Shown here: in pieces, positions 13,332 to 59,728 of the stretch | How the letters are laid out: every line of letters starts with the position of its first letter | How positions within the stretch are numbered: position 1 is the first letter of the stretch | Assembly: GCA_027451445.1 (NCBI GenBank) | Contig: DAIDJG010000324.1 | Span: 1 to 60,527 of the forward strand | Direction of reading: 5' to 3' | DNA length: 60,527 nt | From: Singulisphaera sp. | GTDB lineage: Bacteria; Planctomycetota; Planctomycetia; Isosphaerales; Isosphaeraceae | The notes under the pieces: generated by a model | What the model was told of the DNA's origin: nothing | What the model saw: only the letters and a program-made list of their open reading frames with translations | Database searches by the model: none | Translations under genes and position numbers: made by a program

Positions 13332-14291
13332 ATGACGTTCACCTGGATGCGCCGAGGCGCGGTCGTGGGATTGGGGTTCGCCGGACTGTTGACGCTGATC
13401 GTCGCCGGTTGCGGCGGCGATCAAGGCGGAGCGGACAAGGCCGTCGTGTATCCGGAACAGGGCGTGAATATCCCCACCGCCAACAATGCGGGCTCGACCG
13501 CAGGCTCTGCCGGAGGAACCTCCGCAGCGCCCGCACCGGCCGCGTCGACCACGGCGACGCCGAGCAAGTCAGAGCCTGCCGCGGCATCCGGCGGCTGGGG
13601 GACGCTCAAGGGCCAGGTGGTCTTCGAAGGGAATCCGCCCGCTCCGGAGGATCTCGTCGAGAAGGGCAAGGCCCCCAAGGATGAGACCTACTGCGCCAAG
13701 GACGGCCCGATCAAGTCGGAGCGTCTGGTGGTGGACGGCGCCTCGAAGGGTGTCAAGAACGTGCTCGTGTACATCCCCAAGCCCACGGCCGTGAACGAAG
13801 AGGCCAAGTCGGCAGCCACGTCCAAGGATTTCGTGTTCGACCAGAAGGGGTGCGTCTTCGAGCCCCACGTCGTCGCGTTCATGAACGGTGGAAAGCTCAC
13901 TCTCAAGTCGAGCGACCAGGTCAATCACAACGTCGACGCCAAGCTGAAGGCCAACTCGATCTACAACCAGATCCTGGCCTCCGGTCAGTCGATGGTCTAC
14001 TCCCCGAACGCTGGCGAACGCACGCCTTGTGAAGTCATTTGCGACATTCACCCCTGGATGAAGGCCTACTGGCTCATCCTCGACAGCCCGTATTTCGCGG
14101 TGACCGACGACAAAGGCAACTTCGAGATCAAGAACGTGCCCTCGGGCGCCCAGAAAGTGGTCGTCTGGCAAGAAGCGGTCAACAAGGGTTTCGTCACCGC
14201 GCCGTCGGGCGATGAGGTCAACATCAAAGCAGGCGACACCACGACACAGAACTTCAAGATCGACGGTAGCAAAGTCTCTGCGGCAAAATGA
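13332..14291 (+). CDS. Cupredoxin-like lipoprotein with amicyanin-type copper site
   Basis: A 319-aa exported protein. Start: AGGAG at 13321-13325 is best spaced for the ATG at 13332 rather than the GTG at 13329. Seen: a lipoprotein signal with lipobox VAGC (Cys27), a Gly/Ala/Ser-rich linker, then a beta-rich domain with NHN (His199) and CDIHPWM (Cys237, His240, Met243). The His...Cys-x2-His-x2-Met set is the type I copper arrangement of amicyanin. The last ~80 residues resemble a carboxypeptidase-regulatory-like beta sandwich (DDKGNFEIKNVPSG). Inferred: a periplasmic blue-copper electron carrier taking electrons from the bc complex encoded upstream. A related protein lies downstream at 14781. 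Copper binding is deduced, not shown. Confidence 0.78.
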   Translation: MTFTWMRRGAVVGLGFAGLLTLIVAGCGGDQGGADKAVVYPEQGVNIPTANNAGSTAGSAGGTSAAPAPAASTTATPSKSEPAAASGGWGTLKGQVVFEGNPPAPEDLVEKGKAPKDETYCAKDGPIKSERLVVDGASKGVKNVLVYIPKPTAVNEEAKSAATSKDFVFDQKGCVFEPHVVAFMNGGKLTLKSSDQVNHNVDAKLKANSIYNQILASGQSMVYSPNAGERTPCEVICDIHPWMKAYWLILDSPYFAVTDDKGNFEIKNVPSGAQKVVVWQEAVNKGFVTAPSGDEVNIKAGDTTTQNFKIDGSKVSAAK

Positions 14292-14311
14292 CCCCTTGAG
14301 CGCCTCGCAAT

Positions 14312-14563
14312 TGCGTCGCGCACAGTCGGGAGGGCGAGGCTCCGTCCGAGCCAGCCTTGATCCATCGGCGAGTCTTCGAGCCGATGGATCATCGCGCGCC
14401 GCCCAGGGGTCTGCGTCGTCACACGCGATGTTCAGAGGACTCGAAGACTCGTCCTCCGAACAGGGCTGGCTCGGACGGAGCCTCGCCCTCCCACAGGCAT
14501 GTCAATGCCAAACATCAAACGATCGCGTGAGGGCCTGGCGTGCGAAATGCGAGTGAGAACCGT
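14312..14563. repeat. Palindromic dispersed repeat, copy 1
   Basis: A ~250-bp element related to the copy at 59401-59655. The outer arms, 14328-14356 and 14464-14492, are 29 bp and exactly complementary. Inside are two hairpins: stem 14359-14369/14380-14390 with loop GAGTCTTCGA, and stem 14435-14440/14451-14456 with loop TCGAAGACTC. The two 10-nt loops are reverse complements of each other. A more diverged tail runs to about 14563. It starts 20 nt (arms 36 nt) after the preceding stop codon. No transposase is encoded. It could be a MITE/REP-like element or a transcribed structure. Confidence 0.85.
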
Positions 14564-14623
14564 TCTACCTGGACACCACCGCCGGCCCGACCCGTTTCCC
14601 AATGAAGTGATTCGTGTCCACTG

Positions 14624-14780: not shown

Positions 14781-15659
14781 ATGAAGCGGTTTGCAAATTG
14801 TGGCCTGGCCCTGCGAGGGCTCGTGACATGTCTCGCGGCGTCATTCGTGTTTCTGGGACTGGTGGGTCTTGCCGGTTCTTCTGCCACCGCGACGCCACCG
14901 GTCGCCACCGTCGCGGCCAACCTGGTCACGGCTGATGGTCAGTACGCCACCATCAAGGGCCGTCTCGTCTGGGGCGGAGATAAAGCCCCTGCGCCCGTCG
15001 AGCTCGACCTGACGAGCAAGAAGGATCCGGCTTGCGGCAAGGGCGGAAAGCTTGTCAACCAGGGGTTGATCGTCGATCCCAAGACCAAGGGCGTCAAGTG
15101 GGGGATGGCCTACCTCGTCAAACCGATCGGCACCAATCCCGACAAACCGATCAAGGACCATGTCGGGACACTCCTCAAGTCCCTGGCCGAGAAACACCCG
15201 CAGGTCGAGATTGATCAGGTCAACTGCGAGTACGTTCCGTACGTCGTGGCCGTCACTCCGGAGCAAACGCTTCTGTTGAAGTCGAGCGACGCCACCAACC
15301 ACAATGTGCACCTCTCGTCATTCACGAACGAGGCCTTCAATATCCTGCTCCCCCCGAACGGTCAGATGACCAAAAAATTGGTTCCGGAAAAGCGCCAAAT
15401 GTCGTTGAAGTGCGACATTCACCCCTGGATGCAGGCCTGGATCTTCGCGTTCGACCATCCCTTCTTCGCCGTGACCGGCGATGACGGTTCATTCGAGATC
15501 AAAGGTGTACCTCCCGGTACATATAAGATGGTGATCTGGGAAGCGGCCGTCGGTTACGCGACCTCCGGCGGAGGGGCCGGCATGGAAGTGAAATGCGAGG
15601 CTGGTAAGACGACCGACATCGGTGAGATCAAGCTCGACCCGGCGAAGGTCAAACTGTAA
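14781..15659 (+). CDS. Exported cupredoxin-like protein, paralogue of the 13332 gene
   Basis: A 292-aa secreted protein with the same architecture as the lipoprotein at 13332. ATG at 14781 is preferred to the TTG nine bases upstream because it begins a typical signal peptide (MKRFANCG..., hydrophobic to about 40). Seen: NHN with His174 and CDIHPWM with Cys211, His214, Met217, the amicyanin-like copper set, then a C-terminal DDGSFEIKGVPPG beta-sandwich. It lacks the lipobox, so it may be soluble in the periplasm while its paralogue is membrane-tethered. The two share conserved blocks over much of their length, consistent with tandem duplication followed by divergence. Inferred role: mobile electron carrier. 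A hairpin 17 nt after the stop may end its mRNA. Confidence 0.78.
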   Translation: MKRFANCGLALRGLVTCLAASFVFLGLVGLAGSSATATPPVATVAANLVTADGQYATIKGRLVWGGDKAPAPVELDLTSKKDPACGKGGKLVNQGLIVDPKTKGVKWGMAYLVKPIGTNPDKPIKDHVGTLLKSLAEKHPQVEIDQVNCEYVPYVVAVTPEQTLLLKSSDATNHNVHLSSFTNEAFNILLPPNGQMTKKLVPEKRQMSLKCDIHPWMQAWIFAFDHPFFAVTGDDGSFEIKGVPPGTYKMVIWEAAVGYATSGGGAGMEVKCEAGKTTDIGEIKLDPAKVKL

Positions 15660-16828: not shown

Positions 16829-17027
16829 CGAACCGTATCGCTGCCGGGCTTTCTCACATCGGGGTCGGCAGTTCTGACGCCGAACCATATGGCGCGCAAG
16901 GGTGCCCCCATGCCGTGCGCCTTCGCCAGCAGTCCTCGTCGGCGCTCAGGCGGCCTACATAGACACGATGAAATCCAGCCGGATCCAGGAAGTGACAGCA
17001 TGGTGAGCGGTCAGCGGAATCCGCAGA

Positions 17028-17155
17028 CAAGTATCCAACAGCAAATTTCGGATATCTCGTAAATCTCGGAGCCCCTTTCTTCGAAGTGCAATCAAGTATC
17101 CAACAGCAAATTTCGGATATCTCGTAAATCTCGGAGCCTTTCTTCGAAGCGCAAT
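17028..17155. repeat. Tandem duplication of a 63-65-bp unit
   Basis: Unit 1 at 17028-17092 (65 bp) and unit 2 at 17093-17155 (63 bp) are nearly identical; the differences are a 2-bp loss in a C-run and one substitution. The core TTCGGATATCTCGTAAATC recurs in a diverged third copy, in reverse orientation, at 57440-57501. The sequence is AT-richer than its surroundings and has no open frame of note. Confidence 0.85.
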
Positions 17156-17657: not shown

Positions 17658-20600
17658 ATGACGAAGTCCCCAACGACGGTGCAATTCTCCTTCCGGTTCC
17701 CTTCCCGGCTGGTTTTGTTCCTCACTTCGATTGTTCTCGGCCTACCGCTTTCCCAAGGCTGGGCTCAGGTGCCCCCCCGTCTCACAAGCAAGTTCTACCC
17801 CGACTTCAGTGATACGGCCGACGCACTTCTGCGGAACGCAGCCAGCCATGCCAAGGATGGGCAATGGGCGGAAGCGATCGATATCTACCAGCGCGTGATT
17901 CAGCAATACGGCGATAAAGTCGCGAGACTTCCCAAGGATGACCCCGCAGGCGATCCCACCGGGGACTCATTCCTGTATGTGGACCTCCGCCAGTTCTGCC
18001 AGCGAAGGCTGGCCGCCCTCCCTGCCGATGCGCTGGCCATCTACCGCCGCCGGGTCGATACCCAGGCGGAGCGCTGGTACAAGCAGGGTGCCGCCGAGCG
18101 CGACCGGACGTTACTCCGGCGCATCGTGGAGCAAGCGTATTGCAGCTCGTGGGGCGATGATGCGCTGGACCTGCTCGGCGACCTCGCGTTTCAGGAAGGC
18201 CGGTTTGACGAGTCGTTGGCACTCTACCGACAACTCGTCCCCGACGGTGATGCAAACCGCGGGGGCCTTGTGTATCCCGATCCGAGTGTCGAGCTGGCGC
18301 GGGTCGCTGCAAAAAAGCTGCTCAGCCGCGCTGCGTTGGGCGAAAACCCGCCTGGCCCTGCGGATGTCGCGGCCTACGCCAAGGCGTATCCGGACGCTCG
18401 AGGGAACCTTGCCGGACGGACAGGGCTGTACTCCGAGATCGTCGCCGCAGCCATCAAGAGCGACCACCTCACTCCTCCGGCCCAACCCGACGGTCGCTGG
18501 CCGACGTTTGCCGGATCTCCCACGCGCACCAGGGTCGTCCCGGGCCCGATTGACGTCGGGTCGCTTCAGTGGCGCGTTGAGCTTCCCGTGCCGAGCCACT
18601 CGGAGGGCGGCGGCCGCACGCCGTTCGTCCGAGGCATGCGCGGGATGCCCTTTCAACCACCCCAGGTCTCACCGGACCGCCTCCTGGCCTACCACCCCAT
18701 CGTGATTGGCGACCAGGTGCTCGTCTGTGATGAGAACCGGATCCTTGCCTACAATCTGAACGACCGCCCCAGCGGCCCCACCACGGTCGTCGAGCCGGCG
18801 TGGAAGCGCGAGGAGGGCAGCAAGGGGATGGCGCCCGCGATGCGCACCATCCCTCGAGTTCCGCGCTACACGCTTACGGCAGTCGGCGACCGGATCTACG
18901 CTCGTATGGGCGCAAGCACGCTCCCCGTGCTCGGCGGCATGGGCCCCAGAAACCGCGAGGAAAAGAGCTTCCTCATTGCGGTGGACCGGAGCACGGAAGG
19001 GAAGTTGATCTGGAACAAGCCGGCGCCGGACGTCGAGCTCCCCAAGCGCCATGCCGAGGCGCAGAACCGGCCCGCAGGGTTTGAAGGAACCCCGGTGGCG
19101 GACGCCCACAACGTCTATGTTGCCATGACGGACCGAGGCGAGCAAACCGCCACGTACGTCGCTTGCCTCGACGCCGATACCGGCAACAAGCGCTGGGTTC
19201 GCTATCTCGGGGCCGCGTCGCCGGAGATCGACAACAACATGGGGATGGCCTTCGGCATGGCGCCAACGCTGATCCCGAGCGACTTCGGTCATCGCTTGCT
19301 CACACTCGATGGCACATCGCTTTACTACCAGACGAACCTCGGTGCCGTTGTGGCGCTCGACACGGAGAACGGCGCGATCCGCTGGGTGGCCACCTACCCG
19401 CGTCAGGATCGCGTTGGTGGCGCGGACGGACGCGACCGCGACCTCAATCCGGCAATCGTCCACGACGGGCTGGTGATCGTCGCGCCCGACGACGCCACAT
19501 CGCTATTCGCCTTCGACGCCGCAACCGGCCGACTGGTTTGGAAGTCGCCCGCATTCGCCGACGATGTCAAACTCGCGCACGTGCTTGGCGTGGCCAAAGG
19601 GCATGTGGTCGCGACTGGCAACCGCGTCGTGCTGCTCGACGTCAAGAACGGAAACATGGTCCACTCCTGGCCTGACGGAGGCGGTCCCCCCGTGACGGGC
19701 TTCGGCCGTGGACTGCTCGCCGGTGATCGCATCTACTGGCCCACCCAGCGCGAGATCCACATCCTCGACCAGAGCACCGGCCTGCCGACGGATCCCCCGA
19801 TCCAGCTCAAGGAGGCATTCGGTACCGAAGGCGGCAACCTCTGCGTCGGCGACGGCTACCTGATCGTGGCACAATCCAATGCCCTGGTGGTCTTCTGCCA
19901 AAACAGCCGGCTCATTCAGCGTTACAAGGAAGAAATTGCCCGCAATCCCGATCAGGCCACAGGCTACTACCGCCTCGCCCAGGCCGCCGAGGCAACGGGA
20001 CAGGAAGCGCTGGCGCTGGAATCACTCACCAAAGCCCTCCATCGAGCGCGCCCCTCAGAGAACATCGACGGCGTGCCCCTCGTCGAAGCCGCCAAGGTCC
20101 AGGAGTACCGCCTCCTGATGAAGCTCGCCGCACAAGCGAAGGGGGCGAAGAACCTGGCCGAAGCCGCGCGCTACTTTACTGAAGCCGCGGAAGCCGCCCA
20201 GACGGATCGCGACCGTCTCCATGCGCGTCTCACGCTAGCCAGCATCCAACTCGACCGTGGTCAGCCCAAGGACGCTGTGCGCATCCTGCACGCTCTTCTG
20301 AACGACGACCGCCTTGCTTCGACGAATGTCGCCGCCGAGGACGGTCATCGCACGATCCGGGCAAACCTGCTGATCACCGACCGGCTCGCGGGCATCGTGC
20401 GCACCCAGGGTCGTGCGGTTTACGAGGAATTCGACCGCAAGGCGCAGTCGCTTCTCGAACAGGGCCGGAAACAAAAGGATCCGCGACTGCTGGAAGAGGT
20501 CGCACGCGGGTATCCGTTGGCCGAGGTCTTGCCGGATGCACTGCTGGCGCTCGGAGCATTGCAGGAATCCAAGGCCAGACCGGCCGAAGCGTCGCATGCC

Positions 20601-59382: not shown

Positions 59383-59400
59383 TCTCGAGCGGTTTTCACG

Positions 59401-59655
59401 TGCGTTGCGCACACCCGCGAGGGCGAGGCTCCGTCCGAGCCAGCCTTGATCCATGGGCGAGTCTTCGAGCCGATGGATCATCGCGTGCCCCACACGGGAC
59501 CGCCTCAGCACACGCGGTGTTCGGAGGACTCGAAGACTCGTCCTCCGAACAAGGCCGGCTCGGACGGAGCCTCGCCCTCCCAAAGACATGCCGAGCCCAT
59601 ACATGAAATGATCTCGGGTGGGTCCGGCATGCGCAACGCGCACGAAAATCGTTCT
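59401..59655. repeat. Palindromic dispersed repeat, copy 2
   Basis: A ~250-bp element matching the copy at 14312-14563 in the same order. Outer arms 59417-59445 and 59553-59581 pair with two mismatches. Inner hairpin 1 (GATCCATGGGC...GCCGATGGATC) has one mismatch; hairpin 2 stem CGGAGGAC (59522-59529) / GTCCTCCG (59540-59547) is perfect. The loops GAGTCTTCGA and TCGAAGACTC are unchanged and complementary. It starts 18 nt after a stop codon, as copy 1 starts 20 nt after one. Confidence 0.85.
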
Positions 59656-59728
59656 CGGCGAGTCGCCGTGTGCGAAAGGTCCTCCCGACGGCTTGCGGTT
59701 GTCGCGAGAGCGCATCCCGCGTGGCTGG

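What the first reader, a model, noticed from the sequence alone, without database searches (positions are those of the whole stretch)
14312..14563. Palindromic ~250-bp repeat with two mutually complementary hairpin loops, also present at 59401-59655
Two copies about 45 kb apart share 29-bp outer arms (perfect in copy 1, two mismatches in copy 2), two inner hairpins whose 10-nt loops (GAGTCTTCGA and TCGAAGACTC) are exact reverse complements, and a diverged tail. Loop sequences are unchanged while stems carry mismatches, as expected if loop-loop contact matters. Each copy starts 18-20 nt after a stop codon in the same orientation to the preceding gene. This could be a kissing-loop RNA structure, a mobile REP/MITE-like element, or a protein-binding site.
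Basis: partly seen in the sequence, partly recalled or inferred. Interest (0 to 1): 0.78.

Follow-up and report, generated by a model that had tools for sequence, protein, structure and literature searches.

The report
Mobile repeat with two inverted hairpins
A roughly 270-base repeat present about 100 times in one bacterial genome (probably a planctomycete) looks like a small mobile DNA element made of two inverted hairpins whose 10-letter loop also caps unrelated hairpins in other bacteria; the loop probably matters as a folded single-strand DNA signal and not as an RNA "kissing loop".

Summary
Both window copies belong to a repeat with about 100 copies in this draft genome. In 45 family genomes the loop pair occurs only here (85 exact pairs). 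Copies are about 270 bp and end in degenerate terminal inverted repeats, mostly TA-flanked. They sit between genes and avoid promoters: 22 convergent, 35 tandem, 2 divergent. The core is an inverted pair of ~80-nt units, so the loops are reverse complements by construction.

Local hairpins covary (75 double-change cells versus 24 shuffled). The long-hairpin/loop-loop pairing does not (3 versus 7.6). Wobbles favour the GAGTCTTCGA strand in both units, which lie on opposite strands. That suggests single-strand DNA hairpins, as in REP/REPIN elements, and argues against a single-RNA kissing complex.

The same 10-nt loop pair caps unrelated stems in other planctomycete and a few other genomes. GAG...CGA-capped repeats flank Y1 transposases on both sides in three genomes. 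A cognate transposase for this exact element was not found, so the mobilising mechanism is inferred.

Verdict: new variant of a known kind, a composite MITE/REPIN. The open point is why one apical loop is shared by unrelated stems.

The parts
14296..14567 (+). Copy 1, full element including degenerate terminal inverted repeats
   Evidence: Conservation boundary in an alignment of 74 copies; sequence
14298..14327 (+). Copy 1, 5' terminal inverted repeat (GAGCGCCTCGCAATTGCGTCGCGCACAGTC)
   Evidence: Aligned copies; counterpart at 14534-14567
14328..14356 (+). Copy 1, 5' outer arm (29 nt), pairs with 14464-14492
14359..14390 (+). Copy 1, hairpin A, 11-bp stem with loop GAGTCTTCGA at 14370-14379
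   Evidence: Covariation in 76 copies
14391..14398 (+). Copy 1, central stem 5' arm, pairs with 14422-14429
   Evidence: Helix 3 (90.8% of cells paired, little covariation)
14422..14429 (+). Copy 1, central stem 3' arm
   Evidence: Helix 3
14430..14461 (-). Copy 1, hairpin B = inverted second unit; on the + strand its loop reads TCGAAGACTC at 14441-14450; the favoured fold is on the minus strand
14464..14492 (+). Copy 1, 3' outer arm (29 nt)
14534..14567 (+). Copy 1, 3' terminal inverted repeat ending GAACCGTTC-TA
59385..59656 (+). Copy 2, full element including terminal inverted repeats
59417..59445 (+). Copy 2, 5' outer arm, pairs with 59553-59581 (two mismatches)
59448..59479 (+). Copy 2, hairpin A with loop GAGTCTTCGA at 59459-59468
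59480..59487 (+). Copy 2, central stem 5' arm, pairs with 59511-59518
59519..59550 (-). Copy 2, hairpin B (inverted unit), loop TCGAAGACTC at 59530-59539 on the + strand
59553..59581 (+). Copy 2, 3' outer arm

Best explanation
A non-autonomous mobile element, about 270 bp and about 100 copies: a MITE-like shell (degenerate terminal inverted repeats, mostly TA-flanked) around a REPIN-like core, that is, two inverted copies of an ~80-nt unit. Each unit carries a hairpin that folds as a single strand on its own GAGTCTTCGA strand. The loop probably closes as a cap (tandem G.A pairs, a G-C pair, TCTT) that a DNA-processing protein reads, most likely a Y1/HUH (TnpA-REP type) transposase acting on single-stranded DNA during replication. 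The element spread in this lineage and survives where it harms least, behind stop codons. Shown: copy number, boundaries, intergenic placement, stem covariation, strand bias, loop conservation across unrelated stems, and GAG...CGA-capped repeats flanking Y1 transposases in other genomes. Inferred: the cap geometry, that an HUH enzyme recognises this loop, and which enzyme moved the element. The TIR shell may have been moved by a different (DDE) transposase.
For: About 100 copies, most at 83-94% identity, with sharp boundaries. The shared core occurs inside at least three different outer TIR types. Gene context: convergent 22, tandem 35, divergent 2, although divergent gaps hold more bases than convergent ones in the window. 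Covariation of the four-helix fold: score 0.093 versus 0.057 +/- 0.002 in shuffles; 75 double-change cells versus 24. Loops 99% identical while inner stems are 84-92%. Wobbles in own copies are G.T on the GAG strand: hairpin A 52 versus 11 A.C, hairpin B 49 versus 2. In foreign hairpins 46 G.T versus 3 A.C; 28 versus 3 among 32 distinct hairpins. RNA energies about -20.6 (GAG strand) versus -14.6 kcal/mol (other strand). The same loop pair on unrelated stems in other genomes, some GTAG-tagged (GTAGGGTGGGTC-GAGTCTTCGA-GGCCCACC). GAG...CGA-capped REPs flank both sides of Y1 transposases in three genomes, one of which also carries GAGTCTTCGA elements. Published precedent that some TnpA-REP need the REP loop sequence on one strand (PMC8266576).
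Against: No cognate transposase was shown. Of 9 Y1 genes in this genome only one lies within 1.5 kb of a copy, and that one is flanked by its own different REPs. None of 30 Y1 loci in relatives carries the arm, and two relatives rich in the arms (G003, G022) have no Y1 match. The core lacks a GTAG or CGTC tag. The TIR/TA shell points to a DDE transposase, yet none of the four DDE_3 loci has these ends. Part of the wobble bias in own copies comes from one inherited site per hairpin.
Confidence: 0.6

Rival explanations
1. Kissing-loop RNA: the element is transcribed in 3' UTRs and the two complementary loops pair to make a compact 3' structure that protects or terminates mRNA.
For: Loops are exact complements and 99% conserved; many copies lie just behind stop codons; strong fold.
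Against: Loop-loop and long-hairpin pairing shows no covariation (3 double-change cells versus 7.6 expected). Hairpin B is destabilised on the strand where hairpin A is stable. Complementarity is automatic for an inverted unit. Copies lie in both orientations to genes (19 versus 16), although this is weak because the element is nearly its own inverse.
Confidence: 0.1
2. Plain MITE: a DDE (IS630-like, TA-target) transposase moves the element through its terminal inverted repeats, and the hairpin core is a passenger.
For: TIR pair TA(C/G)AGCGGTTT.../...AAAACCGCTC-TA, TA as the commonest flanking dinucleotide (29 of 38 at the 3' end, 17 of 49 at the 5' end), loss of conservation at the TA; DDE_3 genes exist in the genome.
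Against: The core is better conserved than the TIRs (arms and loops 96-99% versus about 65-75%) and occurs in at least three TIR contexts. No DDE_3 locus carries these TIRs. Target duplication was not tested copy by copy.
Confidence: 0.25
3. Duplex DNA binding site (nucleoid protein, gyrase or replication/termination factor), with the loop sequence as the recognised duplex motif.
For: Loop 10-mers and arms are the most conserved parts; REPs are reported binding sites of several proteins (PMC2817692 abstract).
Against: A duplex site does not explain compensatory stem changes with stem sequence free to vary or the strand-specific wobbles.
Confidence: 0.1
4. Stems are kept complementary by template-switch (quasipalindrome) correction without selection, and all structure signals are by-products of replication.
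For: Such correction produces compensatory changes in hairpin arms (general knowledge); the outer arms also stay matched.
Against: It does not explain why loops, which are not corrected, are the least variable part, nor the same loop on unrelated stems in other genomes.
Confidence: 0.1

Closest known systems
REP / REPIN elements with TnpA-REP (RAYT) transposases, GTAG superfamily (PMC3733652, PMC3116915, PMC8266576)
   Same: Inverted pair of hairpin units, high copy, extragenic; hairpin read on one strand; G.T-tolerant stems; related GAG...CGA-capped hairpins flank Y1 transposases in other genomes
   Different: No GTAG/CGTC tag in this genome's core; unit about 80 nt, not 20-40; enclosed in a TIR shell; 10-nt cap shared across unrelated stems; no cognate RAYT found
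MITEs (TA-target, IS630/Tc1-mariner type)
   Same: Short, non-coding, terminal inverted repeats with TA most often at the ends, high copy
   Different: Core better conserved than the ends; same core in several TIR types; no parent transposon found
Class 3 TnpA-Y1 'REPtron-like' genes of Planctomycetes/Acidobacteria (PMC6006769)
   Same: Phylum in which such Y1 genes are mainly reported; genes flanked by atypical hairpins in high copy
   Different: Those hairpins are described with a CnGA foot; that feature was not matched to this element here
Family-wide GGGAGGGCGAGGCTCC...CCGAGCC inverted pairs seen in relatives of this genome
   Same: Near-identical outer arms, inverted pairing, one case inside TA-ended inverted repeats (L066)
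   Different: Relatives have short unrelated spacers instead of the two capped hairpins

Membership tests
REP/REPIN | High-copy, extragenic palindromic units | tested here: met
   About 100 copies; 2 of 86 cores overlap a called gene
REP/REPIN | Two units in inverted orientation forming one element | tested here: met
   69-nt inverted halves, 81% complementary; alignment of 76 cores
REP/REPIN | GTAG or CGTC tag at the foot of the hairpin | tested here: not met
   Absent in this genome's core; present in some foreign hairpins with the same loop
REP/REPIN | Cognate RAYT (Y1_Tnp) flanked by the same hairpin | tested here: not met
   1 of 9 own and 0 of 30 relatives' Y1 loci near a copy; the one case has its own different REPs. 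Search limited to 1.5 kb and to draft genomes
MITE | Terminal inverted repeats | tested here: met
   Consensus ends
MITE | Target-site duplication | tested here: inconclusive
   TA most frequent at both ends, but per-copy duplication and empty sites not examined
MITE | Autonomous transposon with the same ends | tested here: not met
   Four DDE_3 loci, none with these ends; other transposase families not searched
Kissing-loop RNA | Loop-loop pairing maintained by covariation | tested here: not met
   No compensated loop pairs in 76 copies; the loops hardly vary, so power is low
Kissing-loop RNA | Element is transcribed | not testable with these tools
   No expression data
Rfam RNA families | Match above gathering score | tested here: not met
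   0 matches in the window

The most novel reading that the evidence does not exclude
GAGTCTTCGA is a portable recognition cap: many otherwise unrelated repeat hairpins in several phyla have converged on, or inherited, the same 10-nt strand-specific loop because one class of single-strand DNA transposase (or host factor) reads the loop and not the stem, so that repeats with different stems can share one enzyme.
Probability: 0.3. Interest if true: 0.65.

Novelty: new variant of a known kind. Interest (0 to 1): 0.5.

Why it matters
REP-like repeats are among the most abundant non-coding features of bacterial genomes, yet what selects their hairpins is known for only a few transposases. A strand-specific loop kept letter for letter on unrelated stems gives a direct, cheap test of loop-based recognition, and explains why two loops can be exact complements without ever touching.

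Tried and rejected
Rfam search of the window: no match. Y1/RAYT next to the outer arms in own and related genomes: no association. IS630-type (DDE_3) transposase with the same ends: none; the one next to a copy (C343) has its own ends. TIR-only pattern search for a longer parent element: mostly copies of the same element, one internally deleted remnant, and one place (L172) not resolved. Long single hairpin (loop-loop pairing) as the conserved fold: rejected by pair counts. Alternative cap GAGCGAAGCGA as an equally common inverted pair in the phylum: only 3 of 149 genomes, so it is not a general rule. Literature searches for the loop strings, planctomycete REPINs or MITEs found no description of this element. 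Several hits of the loop-pair scans (L210, L211, L214, L232, L233, L247, L248) have no stems and are taken as chance; about 7 chance hits are expected for the genome collection (own calculation, 257e9 x 31 / 4^20). One script failed on a syntax error.

Full report
WHAT IS THERE. The window is one complete contig (C324) of a 10.88-Mb draft genome in 622 contigs. Names are withheld; the loop-pair hits elsewhere are mostly planctomycetes, and the sizes of the related genomes fit Isosphaeraceae, but that placement is inference. The anatomy of copy 1 is: degenerate 5' inverted repeat 14298-14327; 29-nt outer arm 14328-14356; hairpin A 14359-14390 with loop GAGTCTTCGA; central stem 14391-14398/14422-14429; hairpin B 14430-14461 with loop TCGAAGACTC; outer arm 14464-14492; spacer; 3' inverted repeat ending at 14567. 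An alignment of 74 copies with flanks shows conservation falling to background right outside TA...TA ends.

COPY NUMBER AND SPREAD. A nucleotide search of the genome found 40 scored copies out of 145 candidates. The loop of hairpin B with its neighbours occurs 107 times with up to 2 mismatches and 0 times for the reversed control. Both loops at the right spacing occur 85 times, and the outer arm 101 times on each strand, so about 100 elements. None of 44 other genomes of the family has the loop pair, nor any of 391 other genomes sampled from the phylum. Relatives do carry the outer arms, as short inverted pairs or tandem arrays with unrelated spacers. The core sits inside at least three kinds of outer end: TACAGCGGTTTACGG..., TAGAGCGCCTCACGG..., and GCTCGGGCAGGAATAAAGTC.... 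So the element looks nested: arms known in relatives, a capped hairpin pair between them, and a TIR shell outside.

PLACEMENT. With a simple codon-usage gene caller trained on the window, 59 copies had genes called on both sides: 22 between convergent genes, 19 and 16 in the two tandem orientations, 2 between divergent genes; 2 of 86 cores overlap a gene call. In the window the divergent gaps hold far more bases than the convergent gaps, so copies avoid promoter regions and lie behind stop codons. No orientation preference is seen, but the element is close to its own inverse, so that says little.

WHY THE LOOPS ARE COMPLEMENTARY. The core is an inverted pair of units of the form outer arm - CAGCCTTG - hairpin - ATCGCGTG. 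The second loop is the first one inverted. What needs explaining is that the loops are 99% identical over copies while the inner stem positions are 84-92%, and that the two stems have diverged from each other (GATCYATCGGC versus GTTCGGAGGAC) while each stays complementary to itself: within-hairpin Watson-Crick pairing is 89-90%, between halves 42-44%. Pair counts on 76 cores give covariation 0.093 versus 0.057 +/- 0.002 for shuffles and 75 double-change cells versus 24 for the four-helix fold; the number of pairs with any double change (8) does not exceed the shuffles, and the shuffle control does not remove relatedness. The long hairpin that pairs loop with loop gives 3 versus 7.6. The outer arms are 96-98% identical too, so the loops are not the only conserved part.

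STRAND. In hairpin A deviations are G.T on the plus strand (52 against 11 A.C); in hairpin B they are A.C on the plus strand (49 against 2 G.T), which is G.T on the minus strand. With a neutral loop in place, the stems are more stable on the GAGTCTTCGA strand in 107 cases, less in 11, equal in 34. With the real loop the RNA model gives about -20.6 versus -14.6 kcal/mol and shows an inner G-C pair closed by TCTT below two G.A mismatches. The DNA model does not show this inner pair for hairpin A, so the tandem G.A cap is an inference. The two units therefore favour opposite strands. One transcript cannot carry both in the favoured form; single-strand DNA processing of each unit can. Part of the own-genome bias comes from one inherited site per hairpin, so the foreign hairpins below are the better evidence. 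A strand-biased mutation process acting on an exposed single strand could produce the same bias without selection; it would still point to the same strand.

THE SAME LOOP ELSEWHERE. Of the 109 hairpins tested, 62 had at least six of eight inner positions paired, in 32 distinct forms. Stem types include GTAGGGTGGGYC/GRCCCACC (Gemmataceae, Isosphaera, Schlesneria), GTGCCACGRTCATG/CATGGTCGTG (Schlesneria), GGCCGGGGCT/AGCCCCGGC, GTGGCTGGGGTC/GCCCCCAGT, GTAGGGCAGGTC/GACCTGCC and AAGCCCGCACGC/GCGTGCGGG. Wobbles are 46 G.T versus 3 A.C (28 versus 3 among distinct forms). Other hits (Phycisphaerae GTCATCCTGAGCGGAGC..., Hydrogenedentota GTCATTGCGAG...) carry the loop in a long hairpin without local stems. 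All these were found by searching for the loop, so the loop itself is constant by construction; the surprise is how many unrelated stems carry it.

TRANSPOSASE. Nine Y1_Tnp genes lie in this genome. Only one has a copy nearby (C486, 300 bp downstream) and it is flanked by its own different REP pair. None of 30 Y1 loci in relatives has the arm within 1.5 kb. Over those loci and the Y1 loci of 15 genomes with the loop pair, 13 of 68 showed matching hairpins on both sides, and in three of them (L253, L265, L277) these hairpins are capped GAG...CGA (GAGCGCAGCGA, GAGGCTTTGCGA, GAGCGAAGCGA). L253 comes from the Phycisphaerae genome that also carries GAGTCTTCGA elements. A GAGTCTTCGA hairpin about 250 bp upstream of a Limnoglobus Y1 gene (L268) is nested in that gene's own REP and is not counted as cognate. 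Published work shows that some TnpA-REP tolerate no change at certain loop positions and lose activity when the loop is replaced by its reverse complement (PMC8266576). GT pairing in REP stems has been noted before and was read as a sign of RNA function (PMC3733652); the opposite-strand pattern found here fits single-strand DNA better.

VERDICT. A composite, non-autonomous mobile repeat: REPIN-like core in a MITE-like shell. Membership in REP/REPIN is not claimed in full, since the tag and the cognate RAYT were tested and not met; it works like one, on present evidence. The kissing-loop RNA is unlikely. The open, testable point is the shared one-strand cap.

Noticed in passing
L088 (G000:C486) 1-2497: A Y1 transposase with its own inverted REP pair, plus one copy of the element, sits between what read like cas2 (1-282) and a cas4/cas1-like gene (from 1734); gene names judged by eye.
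   Followed up: partly
window 17023-17138: Two near-identical 51-nt copies 65 nt apart, upstream of the large gene called at 17769.
   Followed up: no
window 13332-14291 and 14847-15659: Neighbouring genes on either side of copy 1 share a 28-nt stretch encoding CDIHPWM and the same weak Pfam matches, so they are likely paralogues.
   Followed up: partly
G003 and G022 (relatives): Many tandem copies of the outer arm but no Y1_Tnp match, so the arms may spread or persist without a RAYT.
   Followed up: partly
L280 (G000:C343) 498-1760: IS630-like transposase gene with its own ends (TCAGGAAAATAATGCC) immediately beside a copy of the element.
   Followed up: partly
L066 (G029:C1 about 137394): An arm pair inside a TA-ended inverted repeat (...AAAACCGCGCTA) similar to this element's shell, suggesting repeated nesting of such pairs in MITE-like palindromes.
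   Followed up: no
L176 (G000:C534 about 17821): Internally deleted remnant: both terminal repeats and the tail remain, the core is gone.
   Followed up: no
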